Below are positions 1-44,937 of a DNA stretch of 64,000 nucleotides, one piece after another. Every line of letters begins with the position of its first letter. The stretch's first letter is position 1. The stretch comes from Macrolepiota albuminosa (Eukaryota > Basidiomycota > Agaricomycetes > Agaricales > Agaricaceae): the NCBI GenBank assembly GCA_027475525.1, contig JAMWFC010000049.1, positions 5,068,947 to 5,132,946 on the forward strand. The letters run 5' to 3'. Made by a program: the position numbers and the translations under genes. The notes below the pieces were generated by a model that searched no databases, was not told where the DNA came from, and was given only the letters and a program-made list of their open reading frames with translations.

Positions 1-2503
1 GACCTCTATGTCCTAGCTCGTCATGCATGGCGCGCAAGACTCGTAAGCGACGTTCTGGTTTGATGATCAGCTTGTGAGCGCCATCTCGATTCCGTCGCCA
101 AAGTCGGTTGTCGGTAAAGAAGAACCGGGTAGCGTATCGGATAAAGGTCGCGTATTGTTCGTCGGTAAGGCCTGCGGGTCGCTTAAGGTCTTGTAGCCAT
201 TGTTCAACAATTAATAAGCAGCTGTCTTCTGCCTTTGCTTTGGCGGATCGGGGGACGGCATCGTAGGTCAGGTTTCTACTGTCTTCTCTTAGCGGATGGG
301 GCTCTTGTACGACTTTTACTGGAGGCGAATTTTGACTGAAAATGCTTGCCGTGTAGAATGTGAGGGGTGCGCTAAAGGTCTCGGGGCGGTAAGGGACAAT
401 GGGATGTAGAAGGATGCTGGCAGGCTGTTGCCGTCGTAGTAAGGGAATTGGCTGTTGTATGAGGTGCACGAAACCATGTAGTCAGTCGATCCAGTCCTCG
501 AAATTGCTATCAGCCTGTGGATCCACTGCCGGGTCGCCAGGCTGCCGTGGTCACCTAGAAAGTCCATCTGGTCCGTGGAAAGAGCTCTTGACGTGAACCA
601 GTTCAAAGTGAAACATGAGGATAGCGACTACCCACCGGTTCATGCTAGCGGATGGCTGGATGTCGGGATTCTGCAGCATGCCTTTGATGTACCTCGCGTC
701 GACTTCAACAATTAGGTTCCGCACGCCAATCAAATACATCTTTAGCGACTGGAAGGCTTTGAAGAGTCCATAGAGTTCTAGCTTAGGCTGACTGTAGCGA
801 GACTCCCGGTCGTTTAGCGTGATAGACCCAAAGCAGTTGTAACGTCGCTGTTTCCGATTGTTGCTAAGGCACTGGCACAGGAAGTAGCCAACGGCAATGT
901 ACGAGGTATCCACCACCAAGATAACAGGGTCGGCAGAGGTATAATCGATGGGGACTAGGGGCTTGGCGTCTTGTAGGGCTTTTACTAAGTTGCGTTGGGC
1001 AGTGACCTGGTCTGGCCCAAATTCGAAGGGCTCGTTGGCGCGGGTGAGTCGGTTAAGAGCATGTGCACGATGGGCAAAGTTTTTGACAAATATCCTGAGA
1101 ACGCCAATGGTGCCAAGAAAGGCGCGAACTTCAGATAAGTCGCGGCAAGGACCCCATCGCTCCAAGAGTGCTAGGCGAGACTCGTCGGGAACGCGTCCGT
1201 CGGGAGTGCAGATGTGACCAAGTATTTTGAATTTTGGCGCGCAAAGGAGGAGTTTGTGACCGCTAAAGGTTCCACCGCTATACTTCATACGTTGGAGGAC
1301 TCGGTTGAGCAACTGGAAAAACTCCCATAGCGCTAAGCGAATTTTGGAGTTGTCGGGATGGGTCGCTGGTAAACCGTTTACGAGTCGCCAGTCTTTGGGG
1401 CCTTTGACGCCAATGTTATCAATGAAGCTAAGGACATGGTGTGGTATCTCGGGTTGGAGGATGAATGTGATGTCGTCATGGAATATGGGGACTGAGTTTG
1501 TCCAGCCCATCGGCAAGGTAACTAGGCGCAAGGCGCCAAACGGAGTTTGAAAGGTAGTGAGATCCCGGGAAGAGGGGTGTATCAGGCGTTCGTTGTAGCC
1601 AATGTAGAGGTCAAGGGTGGCGCCACAAATGCGCCCGGCAAAGGACTCGGCAAAATGGTCAGGAAAAGGCGGTACGCCAGAGTGTCGTATTGTAACTCTA
1701 TTCAGCGGCTCAAGACTGTGAACTATGCGTAGATTGCCGTTCTTTTTGAGGACACAGAACCAACGGGAGCGGTAAGAACTATTGGAGGGCTCGTAGACGC
1801 CAGCCTTAATCTTGGTCCTAATGATTTGGCAGACCTCGGCTTCGATCCCAGGCGGTAACGGTCGGTTGTGCTCAGTCCACAGTACGTGAGGGATGGTCGG
1901 GATGACGACAGGCGGGAAGAAATCTGTACGTAGACTGCCGCGTTCGGAGTCCTCCCAAGCAAAGGCTTTGTCTTGCTTAGCGACAAGATCGGTAAGGACG
2001 TTCAACTCATCTTTGGTCAAAAATCCTGTGTCGTGTTCCTTGGCGAACTGCTGTTGGCGTTCTGTGGTAAAACGTCCTGTGGGCTGAAAGGGTGGCGGAT
2101 TTGGTGATAAGGTTGGCATGTTGGCAAGAGGGTCGCCAATGATCTGGCGCTCGATTCTAAAATATACAGAAGTGGAAAGGGGAACTGTAGCCTGAGGAGC
2201 GGCAAGTCCAAGAACGGCAGGAGACGAGGCTCCGGGAAGGGTAGTGAGATAGGTATCTGTAAACGCAGTATTCTGAAAAGATTCGGAAGCGGTAAGGTAC
2301 AAGTAGGCAAGAGAGGAGTCGGTAATATTTTGATTTTTCTGGGAAATCTCTGCGTCGGTAGCGGGTAAAGTAGTTAAAACGTCTTCGGCAAGAAAAGCAG
2401 TAGACATAACATTTACAAGACCAGTTGAATGGTCATATTCTAGCGTTAGCGCCACATCTCCGTGATCGTCGCCAATCACCTCCTCGATGGTCTGTGAAAA
2501 CAC
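1..2503 (-). pseudogene. pol: Pol of element A: RT-RNase H, premature TGA, start of integrase
   Basis: Matches element B Pol. The RT motif, FIDD in B, reads FIDN here (codon AAC at 1415-1417), so a catalytic Asp is lost. RNase H follows (VDTSYIAVGYF, VEVDARYIKG). At 551-553 a CGA Arg codon of B is TGA in A, ending the ORF just after RNase H. The same frame stays open beyond it to the window edge and encodes the integrase lead-in, up to the His zinc-binding region (HDELGHR). A 35-residue Lys-rich segment present in B (about 20872-20976) is missing near 2160. Confidence 0.9.
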
Positions 2504-3681
2504 CTGTGGGGTCGTTCGTTGGCGTGCTGGTCGGTAAACTCCGGGGGCTTAGCGAGGGCGCCTTTTCGTTGTCCCCTAGGAAACGTTGGCACCGTTCGTC
2601 GGATTCCGGAATTGGGGTCGCTGATTGTTAGTGTCGTCTCGTCGTCGGTAACAGTCTTGACGACTGATCGCGCCAAGACGTCGAAAGGTCTGCCGAGAAG
2701 TAAATCGTATGCTGGTGAACGTAAGATGTGTATTTGGAGGTAAAACATAATGTTGCCAAGGGTGCACGGCACATTCTTGGCGAGGCCTAGGGATCTGTCT
2801 ACCGTGCCGTTAGCACTCTGCATGTTTAGTATAACGGTAGGGTCGTAAATAAGGCCTAGATCGTTAGCGACTTCAGCTGCCATGGAAATGATTTGAGACC
2901 CGCTATCCACAATCGCTTCTACCTTGTGCTTGTTGTCGACGGTTAGCGCTACTGACCGAATAGCGTGCAATTCTTGAGCAACGGTAAGAATGGCCGGGTC
3001 TTCTTCATGGTCTACTGACCTAAGGTAGGTCTCTACAGGGTCCACAGAGGTGGCGTTAGCGATGGGGTCGGCAGGAGTGTCCAATGAGTCGATGGTAACG
3101 GAAAACCCGGGAAGCGCGTTGTCGAGGTCCTTGACCTCGGCAACGGTTGTCGCCAAGGGACGTCGAGGAGTAACGGCGGTCTTGACCTGATTGCGAACGT
3201 CGGGAGCAATACTACAAAGTTCTTCAACTGATAAGGTGACGGCGGTTTTCATAATGCGGTTGAAGACGTGGTTGGATTTCTCTATGTCGAAAATTGGCGC
3301 GGTTGGTCGGTAACCACCCTCAGGACGTTTCTCGGGAGCGGCAAAGTTTTGTTGTGCGGGAGCATGATAACGGTCGGGAATCCCTGAATAGGGATGAAGA
3401 GGCGGCAAAGGTGGTTCGGGAGCGGTAGCGGACGACGATGGTTCTGGAGTGGTAGCTGGCGGTGCGGCAGGAGGTGCGGCAGGAGCAGGTGTCGGTAACT
3501 TGCTAGCGGGAGGCATTGGCTTATATCCTTTAAGAGGCTGTTTGGGCTGCTTAACTTCAACCCCATCAAACACCTGATTCTTAAGCGAATCCAATTCCTG
3601 CTGTAGCTTGGCGATACGCTCTTCCCGTGAGAAAGTAGGGCGGTCGCCAACGCTGTCAAAGTGTAAGACCTCGTGGATCAT
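2476..3681 (-). pseudogene. Gag C-terminus and aspartic protease of element A
   Basis: Continues B's Gag-Pro polyprotein after the frameshift in the upstream gag. It holds a Pro/Ala-rich linker and then a retropepsin-like domain with the catalytic triplet in IVDSGSQ and the later DLLLGRPF motif. In element B these residues are part of one 770-codon ORF with Gag. The 3' end overlaps the pol ORF in the -1 frame, as in B. Without the frameshift it could be an active protease; as it stands it has no start of its own. Confidence 0.85.
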
Positions 3682-4778
3682 CTGCTGTTGGGTCGCCTGT
3701 TCGGGGTCGGGGTTGGCATTGCCAGAAAGCGTGCCGGTAACGATTTGTCCTGGATTGCGCCTATGCCATTCATCAACTCGCTCCTGGAAGGACTTCTTGT
3801 CCAGGTAGTTGGGAATGGTGGCGCCAGAGGTAAGAATATCTTGCCGTCGATAGCCCTTCGAATTCTCCCTTGCCGAATATAATTTTTAAGAGTAGCGCAG
3901 CGTCCTCTGGTCATGGTATGGCCAATTTCCCCACAGAAGTGGCCAGGGCCAGGTGCGGGTACGTTAGCGGGTCGGTTAGAAGTGAGATTTGTCGTGATCA
4001 TGGTTTCAATGCGCGTCATAGCAGAAGCGACAGCGGCGGTAATAGCAGCATTGAGCTCCTCTTTCTTAACGAAGTCGGTAGTGGGAGGCGGGATGGGAAT
4101 TATACCGTTAGTTCGCTCAGGGGGTGGGCTCGTCCTAGCACGTGATATACCAACGCCAGTGTCCGTTCCCTTGAGAACCCATTTACCGGCTTCAAAGACG
4201 TCGGCAACGTTATAGGGCTCGTCTGGGTGATGGGCCTGATGGACTATCTCTAGGCGACGAGCAATACGAGTCCAAAGCGAAGTCGGGATGCCTTGTTGGA
4301 ACAGGCGACGTTCCTCGTTAATATAGAGCTTGCCGTTCTGCAGAAGCCACCTAGCGATTTTCTGGAACTCGCGGTAATAGGTAGAGAATGTGCCAAGCGA
4401 AGATGTACCGTTGTCGAAAGATTCCTGTACTAATTTCTGCAACTCGTTTACCGTGTATCGGGTAGCTTCCTCTGCGCCAGGGTACAGCTGGATTACTGCC
4501 GTTTTCCAGTCCTCATACAAAGCGCCTTGAGCTGGAACTGGCGGTACGGCAGGAACAAAGACGGCAAACTCGGTCAAACCTGTCCACGTCTCTGCCGTGT
4601 CATACAATACGTATCTTGCCGCGTACTCCTTCATCTGTGTGTGGTCGGTAATGTTACAATCCCTGAATAGATACTCTAATTCCTTGAAATATTGGGAAAG
4701 CTCCTGTGGCTTGGACTCGTCCCATTTCGGTGCCGAGAAGTGATTGCGTGGCGGCATGCGCTGAGCTGGTTGTTCCAT
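3678..4778 (-). pseudogene. gag: Gag of element A, frameshifted
   Basis: Starts at an ATG (4778) matching the Gag ATG of element B and is near-identical to B's Gag over about 300 residues. This is the capsid/nucleocapsid polyprotein that packages element RNA. Two lesions are visible. The zinc knuckle, CHFC...H...C in B, begins GHFC here, so the first metal-binding Cys is Gly. A one-base deletion around 3830-3845 then throws the ORF out of frame, so the last ~50 residues are not Gag-like and the protease region continues in another frame (2476-3681). Confidence 0.88.
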
Positions 4779-5140
4779 AGCGACTGTGTTGGCGAGTTCG
4801 GTTAGCGGTTGTGGGGAAGGAGTTCTTGATATTGGCGACGGGGTAAGCGAAATGACGAGTTGAGAAAGCGGTGTTAACGGAGTGAGGGGTGTGACTGGTT
4901 GTGGTATGGCAAGGGGCGACGCTAAGGGGTCGTCGGTGCTATAATCGAGGGAATGCGGGAAGAGATCAGGAAATGCATCTACAGTGGCGTTCTGTAGTTC
5001 CTGTGCTAGAGAGAGACCCGGTAAGGCACCAGGTGGTTGTGGAGTTGACGGGTGGGAAGGGGCAATGCCTTCTGCCGACTGCTCTAGCAGATGGCGCCTA
5101 CGCTGGAGACGGGTTTCTGGCGGAATTCTGCCCTAGAGAT

Positions 5141-5158
5141 CCCTCGCGGTGGGCTCCA
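5141..5158 (-). other. Primer binding site of element A
   Basis: Three bases inside the LTR end the minus strand reads TGGAGCCCACCGCGAGGG, beginning with the TGG that pairs with a tRNA CCA end. Elements B and G carry the same site (G with one difference). The primer tRNA would end in ...GGTGGGCTCCA; its identity was not determined. Confidence 0.8.
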
Positions 5159-5161
5159 ATT

Positions 5162-6099
5162 TGATGACGCCCAAAGTTTGGTCAGTAACAAATGTAACAG
5201 AAGTGTTACCGTACCAATTGCTTGCGTTGGGCGCGCTAAAAGTGATGTGAGGAGTCCCGGGCAGGTCCCAGAGAACGCGTCTGTGAAAAAAAGGTAAAAG
5301 TCGGTAACGGGGTCGGCAAGTGTCAAGCACCAAGGTAAAGCGCTTAAGTAAAATGCGGTAAGTGGACACGGCAAGGGCAGCGACAAGAACACGGTAAGCT
5401 TAGCGTAGTTTAAGCGTCAATGATGCCTGCCGTAGCTGCAAGGCGCGAATAGGTCAAAAGTTGGCGAGAGTCTGCAACTGCCGACGAGTTCAACATTGCC
5501 GACCGTAAATGAGCTCTTGAGCGTAAGAGAGACTGACGAAAGAGGAGCAGGAAATTCTGGTCTGTTGTTCTGATGATCATTGTACAAGTCGGTAAGTACT
5601 TTTATACTACAAAGAGTTCGCCGTCGCCAGTGGTCAAAGAGCGGTAAACTAGAAAATTTCATAGGGGTAGCTCCAACGGTTTCAGATCCCTGCCGTCCAT
5701 TCAAGACCCTTAGCGCCACCAGGCGGCAGATCGCGGTGCTAAACCATCAGTCCATCACCTTTCTGTCTGTCCAAAAGGCTAAGCGATGCCAGGTGCCAAA
5801 TCGAAGCGCTAAGCGGTGTCGGACGCCAAGGTCAAACGCCAAGCTGTCCGTCAGTTTTTGATAGATGATCAGGCTTCTTGCTAAGCGCTGTCGTCAGTGA
5901 CTGATGCCATCTGTCAGTTGTCATTCTTGCTGCCGTCGGCGCTATCATTGATTGGATCTGCTTCTTGCCGTGTCCGGCCGTCAGGAATGGCTTAAAATAG
6001 GTAGAACGTGTGCGCTAAGTTCGGAATGAGTGCGGCAAGGTTTCCAGAGCCGGTGCCGAGCCTGCCGTTGATGCGCCTAACCTGTATAGGGTCCTATCA
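5162..6099 (-). repeat. 5' LTR of element A (938 bp)
   Basis: Bounded by TGATAGGACC at the outer end (6099) and GCGTCATCA at the inner end (5162), the same TG...CA ends as the two LTRs of element B. Internal sequence matches B's LTRs with scattered substitutions and small indels. The primer binding site follows directly. Confidence 0.92.
5600..5606 (-). promoter_or_regulatory. Probable LTR TATA box of element A
   Basis: On the minus strand the LTR reads TATAAAA here, at the same LTR position as the TATATATA stretch at 17403 in element B. It would set the start of the retrotransposon transcript. Assigned by sequence and position only. Confidence 0.45.
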
Positions 6100-6330
6100 G
6101 CGAGGGTTCGGAGTAACCCACAAAGGGCCTTGCCCATGCATCCATACAATAATGTACAACCTTTAGCTCTGTAAATAAAAAAATCACATTTAAATAATAC
6201 AAAGTTCTTCTTAGCTCAATAACAGCGAGGAAGTCAAAGAATTTGCTCCAAGCTGTAGTGTTCCCATGAAGTCACAAGATGTCATAAGTGGGGAGAGCAA
6301 AGAGGTGTTCGTACTTCTAATAGACTATGT
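6100..6330. other. Spacer between elements A and C
   Basis: AT-rich sequence with no ORF, RNA gene or repeat that I recognise. It continues at 28829 on the other side of element C, which inserted into it. Confidence 0.6.
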
Positions 6331-6597: not shown

Positions 6598-6613
6598 CGA
6601 GATAATACGACGG

Positions 6614-16800: not shown

Positions 16801-16901
16801 CCATAGGCGCCGGTTGACTGTTGGCCGTCCTGCGGGGGTCCTTTGGAAGCCAATCGGCTAGACCGTCGCGGTCCTCCTGGCAGCTGCGTAACTGGGGGCG
16901 T
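13844..16901 (-). pseudogene. gag: Gag-protease of element C, main part
   Basis: Continues from the N-terminal piece at 28219-28459 across the element B insertion. It contains a retrotransposon Gag capsid domain (LEDWAMDV...YGGD...AMGWFQRAVLH), then a CCHC zinc knuckle CFACGQPGHYATNC, an acidic stretch, and an aspartic protease with DSGSTTSGITPQF and NMILGTPF. Lesions: TGA at 15246-15248, where element D has Arg (CGG) and a CGA codon is the likely precursor, and a +1 frameshift near 14370-14385 between the acidic stretch and the protease. Element D has neither. Confidence 0.9.
16898..16901. repeat. Target-site duplication of element B, left copy (GCGT)
   Basis: GCGT precedes the LTR at 16902 and follows the other LTR at 28219-28222. 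A duplication of 4 bp is the safest reading; the next base is shared with the LTR, so 5 bp cannot be excluded. Confidence 0.8.
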
Positions 16902-17855
16902 TGATAGGACCCTATACAGGTTAGGCGCATCAACGGCAGGCTCGGCACCGGCTCCGGAAACCTTGCCGCACTCATTCCGAACTTAGCGCACGCGTTCTAC
17001 CCATTTTAAGCCATTTCTGACGGCCGCGCACGGCAAGAAGCAGATCCAATCAATGATAGCGCCGACGGCAGCAAGAATGACAACTGACAGATGGCATCAG
17101 TCACTGACGACAGCGCTTAGCGAGAAGCTTGATGATCTATCAAAAACTGACGGACAGCTTGGCGTTTGACCTTGGCGTCTGACACCGCTTACCGTCTCGA
17201 TTTGGCGCCCAACGTCGCTTAGGTGTTCTGACAGACAGAAGGGTGATGGAGTGATGGTTTAGCTTCGCGATCTGTCGCCTGGCGTCGCTAAGGCTCTTGA
17301 ATGGACGGTAGGGATCTGAAACCGTTGGAGCTACCCCTTTGAAATTTTCCAGTTTACCGCACTCTGGCGTCATTAGCCACTGGCGACGGCGAACTTATTG
17401 TAGTATATATATTGCTTACCGACTTGTACATACATCATAACATCAGAACAATAGACCACAGTTTACTCCCCTTTCCTCAGTCTCCCTTACGCTCAAGAGC
17501 TCATTTACGCTACGGTCGGCAACGTCGAACTCATCGGTAGTTACAGACGCTCGCCAACACTCGACACACTCGCGCCTTGCAACTACGGCAGGCATTATCG
17601 ACGCTTAGACTTCGCTAAGCTTACCGTGCTCTTGCCGCTCACCTTTGCCGTGTTAACTTACCGCTTCTTCCTAGGCGCTTTACCTTAGCGCTTACACTTG
17701 CCGACACCCGTTACCGACTTTTCACCTTTTTCACCGACGCGTTCTCTGGGACCTGCCCGGGACTCCTCAAATTACTTTTAGCGCGCCCAACGCACACTCT
17801 TGGTACGGTAACACAAAAGTTACATTTGTTACTGACCAAACTTTGGGCGTCATCA
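16902..17855 (+). repeat. 5' LTR of element B (954 bp)
   Basis: TGATAGGACC...GCGTCATCA. It matches 27265-28218; the only difference I noted is CTCATTCC here and CTCGTTCC there, a CpG transition. I counted 23 TTRSCG/CGSYAA hexamers in this LTR. Confidence 0.97.
17403..17411 (+). promoter_or_regulatory. Probable LTR TATA box of element B
   Basis: TATATATAT in mid-LTR, about 450 bp before the LTR end, at the position where element A's LTR has TATAAAA. Promoter role inferred. Confidence 0.45.
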
Positions 17856-17858
17856 AAT

Positions 17859-17876
17859 TGGAGCCCACCGCGAGGG
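17859..17876 (+). other. Primer binding site of element B
   Basis: TGGAGCCCACCGCGAGGG begins three bases after the 5' LTR. It should pair with the 3' end of a tRNA ending in GGTGGGCTCCA. From 17877 to the Gag ATG at 18236 is leader sequence with no other feature recognised; an in-frame TTG-started extension (18110) is less likely than the ATG. Confidence 0.85.
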
Positions 17877-18235
17877 ATCTCTAGGGCAGAATTCCGCCAG
17901 AAACCCGTCTCCAGCGTAGGCGCCGCCTGCTAGACCAGTCGGCAGAAGGCATAGCTCCTTCCCACCCATCAACTCCACAACCACCTGGTGCCTTACCGGG
18001 TCTCTCTCTCGCCCAGGAACTACAGAACGCCACTGTAGACGCTTTTCCTGATCTCTTCCCGCATTCCCTCGATTATAGTGCCGACGACCCCTTAGCGTCG
18101 CCCTTTACTTTGCCGCAACCAATCACCCCAATTACTCCGCTAACGCCTCTTTCTCAACTCATTTCGCTTACCCCGTCGCCAATCTCCAGAACTCCTTCCC
18201 CACTACCGCTAACCGAACTCGCCAACACAGTCGCT

Positions 18236-20548
18236 ATGGAACAACAAGTCCAACGCATGCCGCCACGCAACCACTTCTCGGCACCGAAATGGGACGAGAC
18301 CAAGCCACGGGAGCTCTCCCAGTATTTTAAGGAGTTGGAGTATCTATTCAGAGATTGTAACATTACCGACCACACGCAGATGAAGGAGTACGCGGCAAGA
18401 TACGTATCGTATGACACGGCAGAGACGTGGACAGGTTTGACCGAGTTTGCCGCCTTTGTCCCTGCCGCACCGCCAGTTCCAGCCCAAGGCGCTTCGTATG
18501 AGGACTGGAAGACGGCAGTAATCCAGCTGTACCCTGGCGCTGAGGAGGCTACCCGCTACACGGTAAACGAGTTGCAGAAATTAGTTCAGGAATCTTTCGA
18601 CAACGGCACTTCTTCTCTTGGCGCATTCTCTACGTATTACCGCGAGTTCCAGAAAATCGCTAGGTGGCTCCTGCAGAACGGCAAGCTCTATATTAACGAG
18701 GAGCGTCGCCTATTTCAGCAGGGCATCCCGACTTCACTGTGGACTCGTATTGCCCGTCGCCTAGAGATAGTTCATCAGGCTCATCACCCAGACGAGCCCT
18801 ATAACGTTGCCGACGTCTTTGAAGCCGGTAAATGGGTTCTCAAGGGAACGGACACTGGCGTTGGACTGCAGCGCGCTAGAACGAGCCCACCCCCTGAGCA
18901 AACTAACGGTATCATTCCCATCCCGCCTCCTGTTGCCGACTTCGTTAAGAAAGAGGAGCTCAATGCTGCTATTACCGCCGCTGTCGCTTCCGCTATGACC
19001 CGTATCGAAACTATGATTACCACCAACCTGACTGCTAACCGACCCGCTAACGTACCCGCACCTGGCCCTTGCCACTTCTGTGGGGAAATTGGCCACACCA
19101 TGACTAGAGGACGCTGCGCTACCCTCGAGAATTACGTTCGCCAAGGTAGAATTCGACGAGCTATCGACGGCAAGATAGTCCTCACCACTGGCGCCACCAT
19201 CCCCAACTACCCAGACAAGAAGTCCTTCCAGGAGCGAGTTGATGAGTGGCATAGGCGCAACCCAGGACAAATCGTTACCGGCACGCTATCTGGCAACGCT
19301 AACCCCGACCCCGAGCAGGCGACCCAACAGCAGATGATTCACGAGGTCCTACATTTCGACAGCGTTGGCGACCACCCTACTTTCTCGCGGGAAGAGCGTA
19401 TCGCCAAGCTCCAACAGGAGTTGGATTCGCTAAAGAACCAGGTTTTTGATGGGGTTGAAGTTAAGCAGCCCAAACAACCTCTTAAAGGATATAAGCCAAT
19501 GCCTCCCGCTAGCAAGTTACCGACACCTGCTCCTGCCGCACCTCCTGCCACTGCCCCTGCTCCTGCTTCAGAACCATCGTCGACCGCTACCGCTCCCGAA
19601 CCGCCTTTGCCGCCTCTCCATCCCTACTCAGGGATTCCCGACCGATATCATGCTCCCGCACAACGAAATTTTGCCGCTCCCGAGAAACGTCCTGAGGGTG
19701 GCTACCGACCTACCGCGCCAATATTCGATATCGAGAAATCGAACCACGTTTTTAACCGCATCATGAAAACCCACGTCACCTTGTCAGTAGAAGAACTTTG
19801 TAGTATTGCTCCCGACGTCCGCAACCAGGTCAAGACGGCAGTCACTCCCCGACGACCCTTGGCGACAGCCGTTGCCGAGGTTGATGAACTCGACGACGCG
19901 CTACCTGGTTTTTCCGTTACCGTCGACCCTCCCGACACTGAAGACACTCTTGCCGACCCCATCGCTAACGCCACCTCTGTGGACCCAGTGGAGACCTACC
20001 TTAGGTCAGTCGACCACGGCGAAGACCCGGCAATCCTTACCGTCGCCCAAGAATCGCACGCTATCCGCTCGGTAGCGCTAACCGTAGACAACAAGCACGA
20101 AGTAGAGGCAATCGTGGATAGCGGGTCTCAGATTATTTCTATGGCAGCGGAAGTCGCTAACGATCTAGGCCTCATATACGACCCTACCGTTATATTAAAC
20201 ATGCAGAGCGCTAACGGAACGGTAGACAGATCCCTAGGCCTCGCCAAGAATGTGCCGTGCACCCTTGGCGACATTACGTTTTATCTTCAGATCCACATTT
20301 TACGCTCCCCCGCATACGACCTACTACTTGGCAGACCTTTCGACGTCTTGGCGCGATCAGTCGTCAAGACAGTTACCGACGAGGAAACGACCCTCACCAT
20401 TAGCGACCCCAACTCCGGAATCCGACGAACGGTGCCAACGTTCCCTAGGGGACAACGAAAAGGCGCCCGCGCTAAGCCCCCGGAGTTTACCGACCAACAC
20501 GCCAACGAGCCTCCACACCGGTGTTTTCACAGACCATCGAGGAGGTGA
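18236..20548 (+). CDS. gag: Gag-protease polyprotein of element B (770 aa)
   Basis: Start chosen at the ATG at 18236, which is conserved in element A. Order: Gag capsid domain (about residues 10-240), a linker, a zinc knuckle CHFC...GH...C with an unusual C-x2-C-x4-H-x6-C spacing (near residue 280), a Pro/Ala-rich stretch, and a retropepsin-like protease with IVDSGSQ and DLLLGRPF. It would form the particle and cleave the polyproteins. It ends in TGA within the pol ORF, which is in the -1 frame; pol is open from 20476, giving a 73-nt overlap. No classical slippery heptamer is visible there. Confidence 0.95.
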   Translation: MEQQVQRMPPRNHFSAPKWDETKPRELSQYFKELEYLFRDCNITDHTQMKEYAARYVSYDTAETWTGLTEFAAFVPAAPPVPAQGASYEDWKTAVIQLYPGAEEATRYTVNELQKLVQESFDNGTSSLGAFSTYYREFQKIARWLLQNGKLYINEERRLFQQGIPTSLWTRIARRLEIVHQAHHPDEPYNVADVFEAGKWVLKGTDTGVGLQRARTSPPPEQTNGIIPIPPPVADFVKKEELNAAITAAVASAMTRIETMITTNLTANRPANVPAPGPCHFCGEIGHTMTRGRCATLENYVRQGRIRRAIDGKIVLTTGATIPNYPDKKSFQERVDEWHRRNPGQIVTGTLSGNANPDPEQATQQQMIHEVLHFDSVGDHPTFSREERIAKLQQELDSLKNQVFDGVEVKQPKQPLKGYKPMPPASKLPTPAPAAPPATAPAPASEPSSTATAPEPPLPPLHPYSGIPDRYHAPAQRNFAAPEKRPEGGYRPTAPIFDIEKSNHVFNRIMKTHVTLSVEELCSIAPDVRNQVKTAVTPRRPLATAVAEVDELDDALPGFSVTVDPPDTEDTLADPIANATSVDPVETYLRSVDHGEDPAILTVAQESHAIRSVALTVDNKHEVEAIVDSGSQIISMAAEVANDLGLIYDPTVILNMQSANGTVDRSLGLAKNVPCTLGDITFYLQIHILRSPAYDLLLGRPFDVLARSVVKTVTDEETTLTISDPNSGIRRTVPTFPRGQRKGARAKPPEFTDQHANEPPHRCFHRPSRR

Positions 20549-23500
20549 TTGGCGACGATCACGGAGATGTGGCGCTAATGCTAGAATATGACCATTCAAC
20601 TGGTCTTGTAACTGTTATGTCTACTGCTTTTCTTGACCAAGACGTTTTAACTACTTTACCCACTACCGACGCAGAGCTTTCCCAGAAAAATCAAAACATT
20701 ACCGACTCCTCTCTTGCCTACTTGTACCTTACCGCTTCCGAGTCATTTCAAAATATTGCGTCTACCGATACGTATCTCACTACTCTTCCCGGAGCCTCGT
20801 CTCCTGCCGTTCTTGGACTTGCCGCTCCTCAGGCTACTGTTCCCCTTTCCACCTCTGTATATAACCAAGCTAACCCTCCCAAAAGGAAAGGGGTTCAAGT
20901 TAAAAAGAAATATAAGCCAGTTGCGCTTAAAACAAAACCCATCGCTACGCACTCTCCCGAGACGTTTAGGATCGAGCGCCAAATTATTGGCGACCCTCTT
21001 GCCGACATACCGACCTTATCGCCGAATCCGCCACCCTTTCAGCCCACAGGACGTTTTACCGAGGAACGCCAGCAGCAGTTCGCCAAGGAGCACGACACAG
21101 GATTTTTGACCAAAGATGAGTTGAATGTCCTTACCGATCTTGTCGCTAAGCAAGACAAAGCCTTCGCCTGGGAGGACTCAGAACGCGGCAGCCTTCGCAC
21201 AGATTTCTTCCCGCCTGTCGTAATCCCGACCATCCCTCACGTGCCGTGGACTGAGCACAACCGACCGTTACCGCCTGGAATCGAAGCCGAGGTCTGCCAG
21301 ATTATTAGGACTAAGATACAGGCTGGCGTCTACGAGCCCTCTAATAGTTCTTACCGCTCCCGTTGGTTCTGTGTTCTCAAAAAGAACGGCAATCTACGCA
21401 TAGTTCACAGTCTTGAGCCGCTGAATAGAGTAACCATACGACACTCTGGCGTACCGCCTTTCCCTGACCACTTTGCCGAGTCCTTTGCCGGGCGTATTTG
21501 TGGCGCCACCCTTGATCTTTACGTTGGCTATGATGAACGCTTAATCCACCCTTCTTCCCGTGACCTCACTACGTTTCAAACTCCGTTTGGCGCCTTGCGC
21601 CTAGTCACCTTACCGATGGGCTGGACAAACTCTGTCCCCATATTTCATGACGACATCACATTCATCCTCCAACCCGAGATACCGCATAACGTCTTAAGCT
21701 TCATTGATGACGTTGGCGTCAAAGGTCCCAAAGACTGGCGACTCGTAAACGGCTTACCGGCGACCCATCCCGAGAACCACAACATTCGCTTAGCGCTATG
21801 GGAGTTTTTCCAGCTGCTCAATCGAGTTCTCCAACGTATGAAGTATAGCGGTGGTACCTTTAGCGGCCACAAACTCCTCCTATGCGCGCCAAGGTTCAAG
21901 ATACTTGGTCACATCTGCACTCCCGACGGTCGTGTTCCCGACAAGTCTCGCTTAGCACTCCTAGAGCGCTGGGGTCCTTGCCGCGACTTATCTGAAGTTC
22001 GCGCCTTTCTTGGCACCGTTGGCGTTCTTAGGATATTCGTCAAAAACTTTGCCCATCGCGCACACGCCCTTAACCGACTCACCCGCGCTAACGAGCCCTT
22101 CGAATTTGGGCCAGACCAGGTCACTGCCCAACGCGACTTAGTAAAAGCCCTACAAGACGCCAAGCCCCTAGTCCCCATCGATTATACCTCTGCCGATCCT
22201 GTCGTCTTGGCGGTGGATACCTCGTACATTGCCGTTGGCTACTTCTTGTGCCAATGCCTTAGCGGCAATCGGAAACAGCGACGCTACAACCGCTTTGGGT
22301 CTATCACGCTAAATGACAGGGAGTCTCGCTACAGTCAGCCTAAGCTAGAGCTCTATGGACTCTTCAAAGCCTTCCGGTCGCTAAAGATGTACTTGATTGG
22401 CGTGCGGAATCTGATTGTTGAAGTCGACGCTAGGTACATCAAGGGCATGCTGCAGAATCCTGATATCCAGCCGTCCGCTAGCATGAATCGGTGGGTAGTC
22501 GCCATCCTCATGTTCCATTTTGAGCTGGTACACGTCAAGAGCTCTTTCCACGGCCCAGATGGACTCTCTAGGCGACCACGGCAGCCTGGCGACCCGGTAG
22601 TGGACCCTCAGGCTGATAGCGATTTCGAGGACTGGATCGACCGCTTACATGGTTTCGTGCACCTCATACAACAGCCAATCCCCCTATTACGACGGCAACA
22701 GCCTACCAGCATCCGTCTACATCCCATTGTCCCTTACCGCCCCGAGAGCTTTAGCGCACCCCTCACGTTCTACACGGCAAGCATCCTTGGACAAGACTTG
22801 CCTCCAGTAAAAGTCGTACAGGAACCCCAGTCGCTAAGAGAAGACAGCAAAAACCTGACCTACGATGCCGTCCCCCGATCCGCCAAGGCAAAGGCAGAAG
22901 ACAGCCGCTTGTTAATAGTCGAGCAATGGATACAAGACCTTAAGCGACCCCCAGACTTTACCGACGAACAATACGCTACCTTTATCCGCTATGCTACCCA
23001 CTTTTTCTTTACCGACAACCGCCTTTGGCGACGAAATCGAGATGGCGCTCATAAGCTAATCATCAAGCCAGAAGGTCGCTTACGAGTCCTGCGCGCCATG
23101 CATGACGAGCTAGGACATAGAGGCCTGTACGCTACCCGAGCTTCTCTGCTAGAACGATTCTGGTGGCCACACGCTAGTGCCGACATCGCCTGGTACATCA
23201 GGACTTGCCACCTCTGCCAGATTCAACAGACACGCCAAGTGCTCATACCGCCAACCGTTGCCACGCCAGCTCCCCTCTTCAGCAAAATCTACGTCGACAC
23301 CATGCACATGCCCAAATCTGGTCGCTACAAGTACATCATTCAAGGTCGTTGCTCGCTAATCCACTGGCCTGAATTTCGAATGCTCCAAAGAGAAAATACC
23401 GACGCGGTCGCCAAGTGGCTATTTGAGGACGTCATCTGCCGTTGGGGAGCGCTAAGAGAAATCGTTACGGATAACGGTGCGCCCATTATCAAAGCGCTAA

Positions 23501-24270
23501 CATACCTCGCCAAGAAATACAACATTCACCACATTCGAGTATCTGGCTACAACAAGCGCGCCAATGGCCTGGTAGAGAGACCCCACTTTGACGTTCGGCA
23601 AGCGCTCTTCAAGGCAGTCGATGGCGACGAGTCTCGTTGGAGCGAAGTGACTTATTCAGTGTTCTGGTCGGAAAGAGTTACTATTCGTAAGCGCATGGGT
23701 TGTTCTCCCTATTACGCGGCTACTGGCACCCATCCTTTACTCCCTGCCGACATCATAGAAGCGACCTACCTTCAACCAGCACCCAACAGTATCTTGGCGA
23801 CTACCGACCTGATCGCCAGACGAGCTATTGACCTTCAACGAAGGAAAGAAGATTTAGAGCGACTCCACGAGGTAGTTTTTAGCGCCCGTCGCCAAGCAGC
23901 CCTACGATTCGAAACTGAGCATAGCGCTACCATCAAAGATTACAACTTCCCGAGAGGGGCGCTAGTGCTCATGCGCAACTCCAAAATCGAAACTTCATAC
24001 AACAAGAAAATGCGACCACGCTATCTTGGACCTTTGGTTGTCATCTCTCGTAACCGTGGAGGCGCTTACGTACTCTGTGAATTAGATGGTTCAGTACTGC
24101 ATCGACCGGTTGCTGCATTTCGCCTATTGCCGTATCTCGCTAGGGAACAAATCGACTTGCCGTTGGAAGCGCTAGATATCGACACCGCCAAGCTTAGAGA
24201 ACTTGAAGAAACCGAATTATTGGACGATGATGACTTGCCGACTTTGGTTGAAGAAGAAGAAATTGACTAG
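20521..24270 (+). CDS. pol: Pol polyprotein of element B: RT, RNase H, integrase
   Basis: Open from 20476; the given start is a GTG and production by -1 frameshift or reinitiation is more likely. Near residues 118-152 is a Lys-rich segment (PKRKG...KKKYKP), a possible nuclear localisation signal, absent from element A. The RT active site is FIDD (D codons at 21706-21711, residues 396-397). RNase H has AVDTSYIAVGYF, an ELYG glutamate and EVDARYIKG. The integrase has H-x4-H...CHLC, then DDE residues in YVDTM, VTDNG and LVERP. There is no chromodomain, and the tail is acidic. No stops or frameshifts were found. Confidence 0.95.
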   Translation: MFSQTIEEVIGDDHGDVALMLEYDHSTGLVTVMSTAFLDQDVLTTLPTTDAELSQKNQNITDSSLAYLYLTASESFQNIASTDTYLTTLPGASSPAVLGLAAPQATVPLSTSVYNQANPPKRKGVQVKKKYKPVALKTKPIATHSPETFRIERQIIGDPLADIPTLSPNPPPFQPTGRFTEERQQQFAKEHDTGFLTKDELNVLTDLVAKQDKAFAWEDSERGSLRTDFFPPVVIPTIPHVPWTEHNRPLPPGIEAEVCQIIRTKIQAGVYEPSNSSYRSRWFCVLKKNGNLRIVHSLEPLNRVTIRHSGVPPFPDHFAESFAGRICGATLDLYVGYDERLIHPSSRDLTTFQTPFGALRLVTLPMGWTNSVPIFHDDITFILQPEIPHNVLSFIDDVGVKGPKDWRLVNGLPATHPENHNIRLALWEFFQLLNRVLQRMKYSGGTFSGHKLLLCAPRFKILGHICTPDGRVPDKSRLALLERWGPCRDLSEVRAFLGTVGVLRIFVKNFAHRAHALNRLTRANEPFEFGPDQVTAQRDLVKALQDAKPLVPIDYTSADPVVLAVDTSYIAVGYFLCQCLSGNRKQRRYNRFGSITLNDRESRYSQPKLELYGLFKAFRSLKMYLIGVRNLIVEVDARYIKGMLQNPDIQPSASMNRWVVAILMFHFELVHVKSSFHGPDGLSRRPRQPGDPVVDPQADSDFEDWIDRLHGFVHLIQQPIPLLRRQQPTSIRLHPIVPYRPESFSAPLTFYTASILGQDLPPVKVVQEPQSLREDSKNLTYDAVPRSAKAKAEDSRLLIVEQWIQDLKRPPDFTDEQYATFIRYATHFFFTDNRLWRRNRDGAHKLIIKPEGRLRVLRAMHDELGHRGLYATRASLLERFWWPHASADIAWYIRTCHLCQIQQTRQVLIPPTVATPAPLFSKIYVDTMHMPKSGRYKYIIQGRCSLIHWPEFRMLQRENTDAVAKWLFEDVICRWGALREIVTDNGAPIIKALTYLAKKYNIHHIRVSGYNKRANGLVERPHFDVRQALFKAVDGDESRWSEVTYSVFWSERVTIRKRMGCSPYYAATGTHPLLPADIIEATYLQPAPNSILATTDLIARRAIDLQRRKEDLERLHEVVFSARRQAALRFETEHSATIKDYNFPRGALVLMRNSKIETSYNKKMRPRYLGPLVVISRNRGGAYVLCELDGSVLHRPVAAFRLLPYLAREQIDLPLEALDIDTAKLRELEETELLDDDDLPTLVEEEEID

Positions 24271-24692
24271 AAAAGACTATATACTGATAAGCTTTCATTT
24301 TCTATTACTTATCTTACTTATCTTTCTTGCCGTCACTTATATACTATATTCAACAGACATTTCTTTACGTAGTCAAGTCGCAGCGCTAGCGTGTCGCCAA
24401 CGCTTAGCGCCTTGCGCAACTCTCGCCAAGGGTTTTTCGCTATGATGAATTACTGAGCGTTTCCCTTTTCCTCAAAAATTTGTCTAAGTCCCCCTCATAT
24501 GATTCATCTTACTAAAACCTACCCTAGGATGCTTACCGCTTACTGTCGCTTAGCTATACTTTGTTTGCTGCTGCGCTAACTCAAATTATAAAGCTTCCCC
24601 TCACACTTGGCAAGAACGCGGCAAGAAAAATATATGCGAGTCCGGCAATGAGTAAAATATCTACAAAACGGCCTATCTACGCTAAGGACCGT
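24271..24692. other. Spacer between pol and the antisense gene of element B
   Basis: About 420 bp between two convergent genes. It carries several TTRSCG hexamers but no ORF or RNA gene that I can support. Confidence 0.6.
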
Positions 24693-27095
24693 TTACTCGC
24701 TACTGTCCTCCATCGGCAGGGAATCGTCGGACACGGGCAAAGATGAGTCTCGAAGCGGCAAGAGGTCGCCCGGCAGGATGTTGTTGGCCGCTTGCCAATC
24801 CAGGGCGGCTTGGCAATCTGCCTGATAGTCCCGAAGGACACTAAGGCTGCGGCCAAGGTTGGAATACCGCAACCTTAGCGCCATTAGCTGCCCTCGGACC
24901 CGCTCCCGCTCTCGTCCCATTACCGCCTCCATCGTTGCCGCCCTCCTGGAAAATCGCTCCAACATCTCCCGCGGATTGAGCGCCACCACTGGGTATACGA
25001 GGTCTTGCCCCAGCCAGTTGAAGGCGTCGCCAGTGACCGTTGGCTGCGGCTGGGGGGTCCACGAGGGATTGACCCTAGCGATCACGGGGCGCCTAGGCTC
25101 CAGCCCGGCAACGTCCTCGGGGTCTGAAACCTCCCAAGGGGCGGCGTTGCCATAGGGAGGCAACCACCGCCACTCAGGCTCTTCCCGGGTAACTCCTGCC
25201 CCCTCCTCTCCTTCCACTACCTCCCTTACCGATGCCTCTTCATCGCCCCCTTCCCGCTGAGTCGCCAACGTTTCGTCGGCCGCCAGATCCTCACTGCCTC
25301 CCGCTACCGCTACCGCCTCCTCTGCACCCATGTCGTCCTCCCCGTCCGCGTCCTTGTCACCAACCGTGGCCTCAGGCTCTTCCCTTGGCGGCGGATCCAT
25401 TACCGCGTCATCCTCGTCGGGAAGTGGCAAAGAAGCCACTCGCAGGTGGATGGGGGAGAGCAAGTTGCTAGGCCCGGCTTCGGTGTCCCTTGGCGGAAGG
25501 CGGCTAGCGGCAAGCGCCTTTTCGAGATCCTCCATCTCAACGTCCTCGGGGGTGGGGGGAGGAGATTCCACTACCCGCGCGCGCTTAGCCTTGCCCTTCC
25601 CCTTGGCAGGTGAAGGGACTTGTCGTTTTAAGGGGACCGCCGTCCCTTGGCGCTCCCCGGCGCCACGAGTACCGACTGTTTCGTTTTCATCCCCTTGGCG
25701 AGTCGGCAGCGCCAGGGAACTCTTGCTGATTCCAGCCGCGTCGCCAGCGGCCTGCTTCTTCCTCTCCCCCTCGACGAACTCCCGCGCCCTTCTGACGAGT
25801 ACGGCACGCTTGAAAGTGCGCTCCACTACCGCGTCGGGAGCCCCACCGCGTTCACGACTCTTGGCGCCGTCCAAGGTGCAAGCCCGTTTTAGCGTCCCGC
25901 ACCGGTAGCAGGGCTGACCACCGGTGGGGTACCAACACCCCTCTGGGTCGTTGTCGGCCCAGCACTTGTCGCACTACAGAAGTGTCAACAGACGCGGTAA
26001 GAAGAGCTACAGCACTTACCGCTCCTTGGGAGTCCTTGAACTCCCGTCTTGCCGCCGGACTTGCCGTCTTCTTATCCTTCATTTCCGGCAAGACTACTCC
26101 CGCTTCCATTCCCTCATCTAAAACCGCCTCATCTCGTCGCGCTACCAACAATCCCTTCAGCTCTCCGTCGCTAAAGGAAGTTTGTGTTGGCGCCTGCCAA
26201 CTAGGCGGTTAGTGGAAAAAGTACCTTGGCGCGACCAACTCACAGTGTAACGAGGGGCGGCAGCCTTACGAGACTTAGAACGAGATAAACAAAAGTCGGC
26301 AGCGGTAAGAAAGCCTAAACTTACCTTCTTCTTCAAAGTCTTCCCAGGCTTGACCGGAGAGCCCGATTTGCTTGCCGGCAGTGCAGGGCTCTGAGCACTA
26401 CCGGCGCGGGAATCCTTCACATCTGACATCTGCCTCCTGGCAACTGGCGACTTCTCGCTAGCAACCAGGGACTCGCCAACGACCTCTCGCTCCTCCAACG
26501 CCTTGGTCCTCTCTTTGGCGTCTTGAGAAGCCTCTGCCAGCACGGTCTCGCGAATTGCCGCCATCTCGGCGTCCACCTGCAAATTGGCGAGAGGCGCCAA
26601 CACCTCTTGTTTACTGTGGGGGGATAACTCAGACCAAAGCTAAGTCAGAAGAATGGGTTAGGAATACTTACTCAGGCGCAGGCGCGCTTACCGTCATCGG
26701 CAAGGCGCCAGAGAGGATGTCCTCCAGTTCGTCCTCAATGGTTGGAACGAGAGGAGGCGCCTAGGGAACTCAATCAGCTAGCGACACGGCAGGCAACAAA
26801 AGCAACTTACGAAACGAGGAAAGGGCGCTAACCAGTCGGCGCCACGATTGTCCACGTACCGCGCCCGACACCACTCCCGCACTTCGATTTCTCTGTCCCA
26901 GCCGACGCCAAGGACGCGAACTTCGTACCAGCGCTCCAACAACTTCATCACGGCAACAACCAAGTTTGGAGGCGCCTCCGCGCCCACACCCTCGATGCGC
27001 TTGACAAAGTTGTTGGCCTTGGCGATGTAGGAAGAGGCGGCGTCTTGAGCCTCGCGAGATGGAACTGGAGGCGGAGTTGGAATTTGGAAAGACAT
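24693..27095 (-). CDS. Antisense five-exon accessory gene of element B with Zn2Cys6-like cluster (705 aa)
   Basis: Exons on the minus strand: 27095-26811, 26760-26672, 26613-26325, 26193-26020 and 25973-24693. All four introns (50, 58, 131, 46 bp) have GT-AG ends and all joins keep one frame, giving 706 codons including the stop. Residues 1-95 form a mixed alpha-helical-looking domain. Exon 5 opens with a Cys cluster at residues 280-311 spaced C-x2-C-x8-C-x8-C-x2-C-x6-C. This resembles the fungal Zn2Cys6 DNA-binding domain except that the first loop is 8 instead of 6. A basic KGKGKAKRAR tract, a long acidic region and an Arg/Glu-rich probable coiled coil follow. It lies between pol and the 3' LTR, facing pol. 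Function unknown; DNA binding is inferred. Confidence 0.82.
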
Positions 27096-27255
27096 ATTTT
27101 TTTAATAGAGCGCCAGGTAAAGAGGTGGAGGAGAAACGAAGTCCAAATTCACGCGCCAGGACTATAAACAAAATCTCAAGAACGCACGGACCACCTGTCA
27201 CAAAAGCGGTAACGGTAGCCTTATTTGGTGACTGAGGACAGTCAATTTTTCAGTT

Positions 27256-27264
27256 GGGGGGAGA
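27256..27264 (+). other. Polypurine tract of element B
   Basis: GGGGGGAGA directly precedes the TGATAGG start of the 3' LTR, as expected for plus-strand priming. Confidence 0.85.
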
Positions 27265-28218
27265 TGATAGGACCCTATACAGGTTAGGCGCATCAACGGC
27301 AGGCTCGGCACCGGCTCCGGAAACCTTGCCGCACTCGTTCCGAACTTAGCGCACGCGTTCTACCCATTTTAAGCCATTTCTGACGGCCGCGCACGGCAAG
27401 AAGCAGATCCAATCAATGATAGCGCCGACGGCAGCAAGAATGACAACTGACAGATGGCATCAGTCACTGACGACAGCGCTTAGCGAGAAGCTTGATGATC
27501 TATCAAAAACTGACGGACAGCTTGGCGTTTGACCTTGGCGTCTGACACCGCTTACCGTCTCGATTTGGCGCCCAACGTCGCTTAGGTGTTCTGACAGACA
27601 GAAGGGTGATGGAGTGATGGTTTAGCTTCGCGATCTGTCGCCTGGCGTCGCTAAGGCTCTTGAATGGACGGTAGGGATCTGAAACCGTTGGAGCTACCCC
27701 TTTGAAATTTTCCAGTTTACCGCACTCTGGCGTCATTAGCCACTGGCGACGGCGAACTTATTGTAGTATATATATTGCTTACCGACTTGTACATACATCA
27801 TAACATCAGAACAATAGACCACAGTTTACTCCCCTTTCCTCAGTCTCCCTTACGCTCAAGAGCTCATTTACGCTACGGTCGGCAACGTCGAACTCATCGG
27901 TAGTTACAGACGCTCGCCAACACTCGACACACTCGCGCCTTGCAACTACGGCAGGCATTATCGACGCTTAGACTTCGCTAAGCTTACCGTGCTCTTGCCG
28001 CTCACCTTTGCCGTGTTAACTTACCGCTTCTTCCTAGGCGCTTTACCTTAGCGCTTACACTTGCCGACACCCGTTACCGACTTTTCACCTTTTTCACCGA
28101 CGCGTTCTCTGGGACCTGCCCGGGACTCCTCAAATTACTTTTAGCGCGCCCAACGCACACTCTTGGTACGGTAACACAAAAGTTACATTTGTTACTGACC
28201 AAACTTTGGGCGTCATCA
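27265..28218 (+). repeat. 3' LTR of element B (954 bp)
   Basis: Same ends and length as the 5' LTR, one CpG-type difference noted. A short ORF on the minus strand recurs in both LTRs only because the LTRs are copies. Confidence 0.97.
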
Positions 28219-28459
28219 GCGTTAATCCCCCGGGCATCTTGTCCTGGAGGCGTTGCGGACTGTCCTGCTGTGAGCTTTCAGCTCTCCAGGCCTCGCTCTC
28301 ATTCCCAGCCAGGTCGGCACTCTGACCTCGGTCTCGAGCCTTGGGTCTTACCTGACCCGCATTGGACGCTGACGCGTCCTGGGTGTCTGCTGGGTCTCCC
28401 CGTAGGTCGTGGGCATTTTGCCTGCCATCAGTGGGCGCTGCAGGTATGGGATTACTCAT
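28219..28459 (-). pseudogene. gag: Gag N-terminus of element C, separated by insertion of B
   Basis: An ATG at 28459 opens an ORF that reaches the inner edge of element B's 3' LTR at 28219. Base 28219 occupies the codon position that 16898 has in the gag frame on the other side, so the two halves join in frame once B and one GCGT copy are removed. The ORF that seems to continue into B's LTR (to 28130) is an artefact of the insertion. Confidence 0.85.
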
Positions 28460-28590
28460 CGATCCCCTGTTTGAAATTTGCACGGTGTGGCTGTGCAAGA
28501 AGCTCGAGAAGCTGATAGAGTTCTGTCAACGAACTCAACGACTGACGTCGGATGCTAGGCAATAGATCCTAGCTGGCGGATTCAAAAAAA
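28460..28590 (-). other. 5' leader of element C, without a recognisable TGG primer site
   Basis: Next to the LTR the minus strand reads TTTTTTTGAATCCGCC. Element D has TTTTTTTAAATCTTC at the same place. Neither begins with the TGG expected for a tRNA 3'-end primer, so self-priming or an internal tRNA fragment may be used. Confidence 0.5.
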
Positions 28591-44932: not shown

Positions 44933-44937
44933 ATGAT

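What the first reader, a model, noticed from the sequence alone, without database searches (positions are those of the whole stretch)
16902..28218. Element B is saturated, coding and non-coding alike, with one degenerate hexamer TTRSCG
Seen directly: TTACCG, TTGCCG, TTAGCG, TTGGCG and their complements recur throughout. Hand counts were 23 in the 954-bp LTR, 8 in 22141-22440 (RNase H) and 5 in 18901-19200 (gag), 36 in about 1.55 kb against about 3 expected at even base composition. Two 300-bp control stretches in elements C (9001-9300) and D (37441-37740) gave none. The motif crosses gene boundaries and sits on both strands, so codon usage alone does not explain it. Inference: a binding site accumulated across the element, for a host factor or an element-encoded protein. 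A known parallel is the VANC proteins of plant VANDAL transposons, which bind short motifs accumulated in their own copies and remove DNA methylation.
Basis: partly seen in the sequence, partly recalled or inferred. Interest (0 to 1): 0.92.

Follow-up and report, generated by a model that had tools for sequence, protein, structure and literature searches.

The report
Retrotransposon saturated with self-recognition word
A mushroom retrotransposon carries about 200 copies of one short DNA word spread through its genes and non-coding parts, apparently kept there by selection, and most likely read by a DNA-binding protein that the element encodes on its opposite strand.

Summary
Element B (16902-28218) holds 200 TTRSCG sites on both strands, 17.7/kb; dinucleotide shuffles give 26.9. 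Codon-preserving shuffles never reach the observed count in gag, pol or the antisense exon (0 of 500 each). Controls C, D and background are near their shuffles. The dense zone ends at the element's edges.

The sites look selected. From B to the related copy A, 117 of 152 are kept versus 85 of 169 anagram controls. A distant copy (L006, synonymous divergence 1.6) shares only 26 of 43 aligned sites with B, yet has 44 where neutral simulation gives 18.

B is a gypsy-type LTR retrotransposon. Its antisense gene (model 732 aa) encodes a six-cysteine, zinc-cluster-like protein with dN/dS about 0.1. In another lineage with a different cysteine domain the enriched core is TASCG without TGSCG (1.5 kb of one copy, noticed post hoc).

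Best explanation: a self-binding factor marks its own family's chromatin, probably against host CpG silencing. It works like plant VANC but is not shown to be a member. Neither binding nor anti-silencing is demonstrated.

The parts
16902..28218 (+). Element B: LTR retrotransposon carrying 200 TTRSCG sites, inserted into element C
   Evidence: Two 954-bp LTRs differing at 1 base, TG...CA ends, GCGT on both sides; 200 sites
16902..17855 (+). 5' LTR, 23 sites
   Evidence: 23 vs 2.6 in shuffles
18110..20548 (+). gag-like ORF with DUF4100 and aspartyl protease; 46 sites
   Evidence: Pfam PF13975 5.9e-08, PF13352 3e-06; codon shuffle 46 vs 9.8
20521..24270 (+). pol ORF: RNase H and integrase H2C2; 60 sites
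   Evidence: PF17921 2.8e-15, PF17917 2.6e-11; codon shuffle 60 vs 11.6; 1291 proteins at E <= 0.001 among 7988 scored candidates
24271..24692 (.). Non-coding stretch between pol and the antisense gene; 9 sites
   Evidence: 9 vs 1.3 in shuffles
24693..27095 (-). Antisense gene, 732-aa model with four introns (26810-26761, 26671-26614, 26243-26194, 26019-25974)
   Evidence: Exon model by script, one possible splice model; dN/dS 0.08-0.13 in 8 of 8 copies compared; relatives found only in Termitomyces
25878..25973 (-). Six-cysteine domain CX2CX8CX8CX2CX6C of the antisense protein, proposed reader of the motif
   Evidence: Pattern scan; first 66 residues 88-98% identical to B in 10 copies while the rest is 75-92%
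27265..28218 (+). 3' LTR
   Evidence: Repeat and alignment
1..6102 (-). Element A (5' part; the rest lies left of the window in L069): sister copy about 90% identical, 95 sites

Best explanation
B belongs to a large family of gypsy-type LTR retrotransposons in a mushroom-forming fungus (inferred: all relatives found for its antisense protein are in Termitomyces). On the antisense strand the family encodes a protein with a six-cysteine, zinc-cluster-like domain, an acidic middle and a C-terminal helix. The element has accumulated about 200 recognition sites for that protein, TTRSCG, throughout coding and non-coding sequence, and selection keeps the number up. I infer that the protein returns to the nucleus, coats every family copy by this word and holds its chromatin open. 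Each site contains a CpG, so binding would occupy about 200 of the CpGs that the host otherwise appears to methylate and mutate. The element would thus recognise itself and resist silencing without touching host genes. Shown: the saturation, its edges, conservation and upkeep of the sites, purifying selection on the protein, and CpG decay of an old repeat. Suggested by one 1.5-kb piece: the word changes with the domain. Inferred: binding, coating and anti-silencing.
For: Saturation independent of codons and composition in every segment tested except the short leader, where 8 of 200 shuffles reach the count. Sites conserved beyond matched controls, 117/152 vs 85/169, p 1e-6; in the LTR 19/23 vs 7/17. 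Substitutions inside sites fall most often on the free A/G position 3 in all five comparison groups. Density held under turnover: of 43 aligned sites in copy L006 (78% identical, antisense-exon dS 1.6) 26 are also sites in B; the stretch has 44 sites in L006 and 48 in B, while neutral simulation from B gives 18.2 +- 3.7, maximum 33 of 2000 runs (the simulation ignores coding constraint). Cost accepted in protein: pol departs from residues conserved in at least 80% of relatives at 18 of 73 motif codons vs 62 of 546 others, p 0.004. Antisense protein maintained: dN/dS 0.08-0.13 with dS 0.29-1.63. Word follows domain: L071 has the domain ...LPCYRCDALKRGCAFNGIRTRERG (28 of the first 45 exon residues identical to B, exon 41% over 288 aligned); there TASCG is 23 vs 7.3 (0 of 2000 shuffles) and TGSCG 8 vs 7.3, with TTRSCG still 9 vs 3.3 (10 of 2000); in L070 TTGSCG is 18 vs 2.4 and TTASCG 4 vs 1.3. 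Host pressure: transitions at 41% of CpG positions in a relic of D vs 12% of other C/G. All 60 loci L009-L068, fetched by similarity to the antisense gene or pol, carry 10.8-17.3 sites/kb (B itself is in twice, A once); the 7 loci without the domain carry 1.7-4.0.
Against: No binding data. The six-cysteine domain hits no Pfam family at E up to 10 apart from a chance match, no PDB fold and no significant PDB sequence, and the models were low confidence. The changed word in the second lineage rests on one 1.5-kb piece and was picked after looking: in its list of 5-mers GATGA (z 4.5) and CATCA (4.4) score as high as TACCG (4.4). Whether L071 lies in an LTR element beside pol was not verified. CpGs inside sites do not decay significantly more slowly than others in the A-B comparison (22/198 vs 103/661, p 0.14). 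The multi-copy comparisons that show slower decay (165/1827 vs 1020/7529; 74/2130 vs 463/7200) are not independent and cannot separate protection from selection. In the antisense last exon site conservation is weak (7/15 vs 6/17). In L006 the conservation excess is modest (26/43 vs 21/57, p 0.026). The four modelled introns hold only 2 sites in 204 bases.
Confidence: 0.6

Rival explanations
1. The antisense protein reads the motif but acts as an ordinary transcription activator, or as a copy-number repressor, of its own family; many sites simply titrate or strengthen binding.
For: The last exon has an acidic stretch (31 D/E vs 6 K/R in residues 191-290) and a confident C-terminal helix (residues 334-396, block pLDDT mostly 93-95). 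The LTR is the densest segment tested (24.1/kb).
Against: A promoter factor needs sites in the LTR, not through the whole of gag and pol at a visible cost to conserved residues.
Confidence: 0.25
2. A host protein, not the element's own, reads the motif (for example a silencing or chromatin factor).
For: The domain's fold and DNA contact are unproven. Host factors could also drive accumulation.
Against: Selection keeps the sites, which is odd for a silencing target. C and D in the same genome lack them. The word seems to differ between lineages of the same genome that differ in the element's own domain. The background is at 1.4/kb.
Confidence: 0.12
3. RNA-level signal, such as packaging by Gag or codon or translation effects.
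For: TTACCG is strongly sense-biased (39:7 in B, 23:3 in A read along the element).
Against: The other three words occur on both strands (31:21, 18:27, 30:27 in B). LTR and the stretch after pol are saturated, and codon shuffles fail. The TTACCG bias has a simpler reading: its complement CGGTAA makes a splice donor (G|GTAA) in the sense RNA; one of the four modelled antisense introns uses exactly such a site.
Confidence: 0.03
4. Mutation bias or gene conversion, without selection on the word.
For: CpG decay is strong in this genome.
Against: Decay removes the word. Neutral simulation loses it. C and D in the same genome are not affected.
Confidence: 0.03

Closest known systems
VANC proteins and VANDAL transposons of Arabidopsis (PMC5735166: abstract, section list and part 1 of 2 of the Results read; PMC10398659: abstract and section list read)
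   Same: TE-encoded protein, a short degenerate motif in the element's own copies, and related proteins with different targets and motifs in related elements (VANC21 and VANC6).
   Different: DNA transposons in a plant. VANC21 localises to non-coding regions and VANC targets often form tandem repeats. Here: LTR retrotransposon in a fungus, sites dispersed at about one per 57 bp in coding and non-coding DNA, a protein with no Pfam family, and methylation loss untested.
[quoted passage not shown]
   Same: Same place and orientation of the extra gene; some of those proteins are nuclear.
   Different: Their functions are stated as unknown; no saturated motif is reported in the passages I read.
TET/JBP-encoding DNA transposons of fungi (PMC12730594, passages read)
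   Same: Proposed TE-borne counter to cytosine methylation in fungi.
   Different: An enzyme acting on methylcytosine, in DNA transposons and some Helitrons; that paper found no retrotransposon with one. Here a DNA-word reader in a retrotransposon.
DNA uptake sequences of Neisseria and Pasteurellaceae (recalled, no call)
   Same: A short self-recognition word written through coding sequence.
   Different: Bacterial genomes, natural transformation, far lower density.

Membership tests
Gypsy-type LTR retrotransposon | Near-identical LTRs, TG..CA, target duplication | tested here: met
   954-bp LTRs with 1 difference, TG...CA, GCGT on both sides
Gypsy-type LTR retrotransposon | Protease, RNase H, integrase in that order | tested here: met
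   No reverse transcriptase Pfam hit in B itself; some of its pol homologues carry PF00078. The Ty3/gypsy name itself rests on this domain order, no tree was built
VANC-type anti-silencing system | Protein encoded by the transposon | tested here: met
   Antisense gene in B, dN/dS about 0.1
VANC-type anti-silencing system | Motif accumulated in own copies | tested here: met
VANC-type anti-silencing system | Sites in non-coding regions, often as tandem repeats | tested here: not met
   gag and pol saturated; sites dispersed
VANC-type anti-silencing system | Related proteins paired with different motifs | tested here: inconclusive
   L071 has TASCG, not TGSCG, with a different domain; one 1.5-kb piece, post hoc
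VANC-type anti-silencing system | Sequence-specific binding and loss of DNA methylation | not testable with these tools
   Needs ChIP/DAP-seq and bisulfite data
VANC-type anti-silencing system | Homology to VANC proteins | not tested
   No VANC sequence was compared; the 59 proteins listed in the profile search for the antisense protein are all named Termitomyces (only 7990 candidates scored)
Zn2Cys6 (GAL4-type) DNA-binding domain | Six cysteines CX2CX6CX5-12CX2CX6-8C (recalled spacing) | tested here: inconclusive
   Found CX2CX8CX8CX2CX6C; first spacer longer and without the usual basic residues
Zn2Cys6 (GAL4-type) DNA-binding domain | Match to a Pfam zinc-cluster profile | tested here: not met
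   No such hit at E up to 10
Antisense aORF between pol and 3' LTR | Position and orientation | tested here: met
   24693-27095 minus, between pol and 3' LTR

The most novel reading that the evidence does not exclude
A self-identity code in retrotransposons: each lineage pairs its own zinc-cluster protein with its own degenerate word (TTRSCG in B, TTGSCG-leaning in L006/L070, TASCG in L071) and rewrites its whole sequence, genes included, to carry the word every 50-60 bp, so that one trans-acting protein keeps all family copies, and only those, out of host silencing.
Probability: 0.35. Interest if true: 0.95.

Novelty: new variant of a known kind. Interest (0 to 1): 0.87.

Why it matters
If true, self-recognition through an accumulated word is not a peculiarity of one plant transposon group but arose independently in fungal retrotransposons, and goes far enough to reshape protein-coding sequence. 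[quoted passage not shown] It also offers a natural experiment in DNA-binding specificity: several lineages in one genome, each with a protein variant and many of its sites, readable from sequence alone.

Tried and rejected
Codon usage: rejected (0 of 500 shuffles in each of five coding stretches of A and B). Base or dinucleotide composition: rejected (0 of 200 for B and for the A part in the window). General feature of TEs in this genome: rejected for C (left arm 6336-16893) and D, which are at shuffle level. RNA-only signal: rejected by sites on both strands, in the LTR and in the stretch after pol. Saturation of introns is not shown: 2 sites in 204 intron bases of the model. Phasing: no helical period (9.5-11.5 bp, 76 of 1000 random placements reach the maximum) and none at 140-220 bp (910 of 1000). 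Footprint spacing: sites 6-10 bp apart are depleted in A and B (8 vs 28.1), and a 13-bp spacing is in excess (12 vs 3.0 in B, 9 vs 2.6 in A); but L006 shows neither (6 vs 3.2; 0 vs 0.6), and A and B are related, so I give it little weight. Protection of motif CpGs from decay: not significant in A vs B (p 0.14). Structure of the cysteine domain: two models of low confidence there, no PDB match. Relatives of pol outside this genome as DNA: none in viral contigs or in genome contigs. One search timed out and was rerun faster.

Papers: nine searches. By the titles and abstract openings listed, none concerns a fungal retrotransposon with a saturated motif or an antisense zinc-cluster gene; the word DUF4100 is in no held paper. 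That is a statement about these searches of open-licence papers only.

I lowered the novel case from 0.40 to 0.35 because the L071 word was chosen post hoc.
Full report
THE OBSERVATION. B, 16902-28218, holds 200 TTRSCG sites on both strands (17.7/kb), against 26.9 +- 4.8 in 200 dinucleotide shuffles, none of which reaches it. Element A, a sister copy in inverse orientation, has 95 in 1-6102 against 12.7. C (left arm 6336-16893) and D have 17 each, against 18.3 and 19.4. The 44283-64000 background has 28 against 19.6, reached by 9 of 200 shuffles. The dense zones stop at the edges of A and B (first site in B at 16963, last at 28169, none in 28219-28590). Ranked by excess over base composition, the four hexamers that compose TTRSCG are the top four in B and in A. 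By raw count in the shorter fetched pieces the picture is less clean: 2 of the four words in the top four in 55 of 63 family pieces, 3 in 7, 1 in 1; in 7 other pieces 0 in 6 and 1 in 1.

SPECIFICITY. With the first and last two letters fixed, 4 of 16 combinations at positions 3 and 4 are strongly enriched: TTACCG 39, TTAGCG 39, TTGCCG 46, TTGGCG 53 against 5.0-6.6 expected. The other 12 run from 0 to 12 against 3.9-8.3. CTRSCG is a second, weaker form (79 vs 26.9). Flanks lean to C on both sides.

NOT CODONS. Codon-preserving shuffles give gag 46 vs 9.8, pol 60 vs 11.6, antisense last exon 15 vs 3.8, A pol part 32 vs 7.3, A gag part 18 vs 4.2, each 0 of 500. Seven C and D ORFs are at shuffle level. 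The LTR (23 vs 2.6), the non-coding stretch after pol (9 vs 1.3) and the 5' part of the antisense gene with its leader (22 vs 3.1) are saturated too; the 254-base leader of the element is less clear (2 vs 0.4, reached by 8 of 200). The four modelled introns, 204 bases in all, hold 2 sites.

SELECTION ON THE SITES. Controls were the 11 anagrams of TTRS followed by CG, so that CpG decay is matched. From B to A (about 90% identical), 117 of 152 sites are kept against 85 of 169 controls, p 1e-6. By segment: LTR 19/23 vs 7/17, gag 34/45 vs 27/58, pol 32/39 vs 30/45, stretch after pol 8/8 vs 5/8, antisense last exon 7/15 vs 6/17, antisense 5' part 17/22 vs 10/24. Changes inside sites fall most often on position 3 in all five groups compared. 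L006 is a more distant copy (78% identity; antisense exon dN 0.17, dS 1.63). Of its 43 sites in gapless alignment 26 are also sites in B, against 21 of 57 controls (p 0.026), yet the stretch has 44 sites in L006 and 48 in B. Mutating B's stretch at random with the observed spectrum gives 18.2 +- 3.7, maximum 33 in 2000 runs; this model ignores coding constraint. Sites are lost and replaced, and the number is held. In pol, B departs from residues conserved in at least 80% of relatives (11 aligned) at 18 of 73 motif codons against 62 of 546 others, p 0.004: the word seems to be paid for in protein.

THE ELEMENT. B is an LTR retrotransposon: 954-bp LTRs with one difference, TG...CA, GCGT at both ends, gag-like ORF with DUF4100 and protease, pol with RNase H and H2C2 integrase. 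Pol has 1291 relatives at E up to 0.001 among 7988 scored candidates; of the 120 listed the few with an organism name are Mycena and Agrocybe. B sits inside element C, whose 233-bp LTRs lie at 6336-6568 and 28591-28823.

THE ANTISENSE GENE. On the minus strand, ATG at 27095, stop at 24693, four introns, 732 aa in the model (one possible splice model). It carries CDKCWADNDPEGCWYPTGGQPCYRCGTLKRACT, six cysteines spaced CX2CX8CX8CX2CX6C, then a basic stretch, an acidic middle (31 D/E vs 6 K/R in residues 191-290) and a C-terminal helix. There is no Pfam zinc-cluster hit, no significant PDB sequence and no PDB fold match, so 'zinc cluster' is by cysteine pattern only. dN/dS is 0.08-0.13 in 8 of 8 copies compared. 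The domain region is the best conserved part in 10 of 10 copies. All 13 and then 59 relatives found are named Termitomyces (about 8000 candidates scored each). The host is therefore probably a related mushroom; I did not identify it.

THE FAMILY. The antisense exon gives 114 matches from 99 scored of 1231 candidates; further places come up with Termitomyces queries. These are lower bounds. The 60 loci L009-L068 carry 10.8-17.3 sites/kb (they include B itself twice and A once); the 7 loci of L001-L008 without the domain carry 1.7-4.0; these 7 were fetched because they hold a double site.

THE WORD SEEMS TO CHANGE WITH THE DOMAIN. The P0171 search turned up a further class with open frame 420. 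One piece, L071 (1501 bases), has CDKCWSENDPEGCWFPTASLPCYRCDALKRGCAFNGIRTRERG; its exon is 41% identical to B's over 288 aligned residues. There TASCG is 23 against 7.3 (0 of 2000 shuffles), TGSCG 8 against 7.3, and TTRSCG as a whole still 9 against 3.3 (10 of 2000). In the exon alone, codon shuffles give TASCG 17 vs 7.0 (1 of 2000), TGSCG 5 vs 6.9 and TTRSCG 5 vs 2.5 (176 of 2000). The first T is relaxed (CTASCG 10, TTASCG 7, ATASCG 3, GTASCG 3). L070, of the L006 class, leans the other way: TTGSCG 18 vs 2.4, TTASCG 4 vs 1.3. This is what a reader encoded by each element predicts.

HOST PRESSURE. A relic of D at 61377-64000 shows transitions at 162 of 396 CpG positions (41%) against 12% of other C/G, as expected where repeats are CpG-methylated or hypermutated; the direction D to relic is assumed. 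Motif CpGs do not decay significantly less in A vs B (22/198 vs 103/661, p 0.14).

MECHANISM. The simplest account is that the antisense protein binds TTRSCG over all family copies and keeps them open or unmethylated. An activator needing only LTR sites does not explain saturation of gag and pol. A host reader does not easily explain lineage-specific words in one genome. The parallel is VANC (PMC5735166), with real differences: kingdom, TE class, coding saturation, dispersed sites, a protein with no known family. Binding and anti-silencing are not shown.

Noticed in passing
L071 (G000:C108:85700-87200): Another lineage of the antisense gene with a changed cysteine domain and TASCG, not TGSCG, as its enriched core.
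   Followed up: partly
16902-28218 and 1-6102: TTACCG is strongly biased to the element's sense strand (39:7 in B, 23:3 in A), perhaps because its complement CGGTAA makes a splice donor; one of four modelled antisense introns starts in such a site.
   Followed up: partly
61377-64000 against 40321-42954: Relic of a D-type element with CpG decay (transitions at 41% of CpG positions vs 12% of other C/G), a sign of CpG methylation or a RIP-like process in this fungus.
   Followed up: partly
6336-28823: Element C (233-bp identical LTRs) is split by the insertion of B; nested insertion.
   Followed up: no
G000:C114, last 1.45 Mb of 6.49 Mb: 14 of 19 merged family places on this contig lie in its last 1.45 Mb; clustering, perhaps centromeric or heterochromatic (coordinates entered by hand, lower bound).
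   Followed up: no
L040, L044, L048, L049, L052: Copies with pol 95-96% identical to B sit beside antisense genes of different open-frame lengths; perhaps the antisense gene is exchanged between elements, though open-frame length is a weak marker.
   Followed up: no
45778-46371: Three direct copies of a 107-base unit (100, 89 and 64%), unexplained.
   Followed up: no
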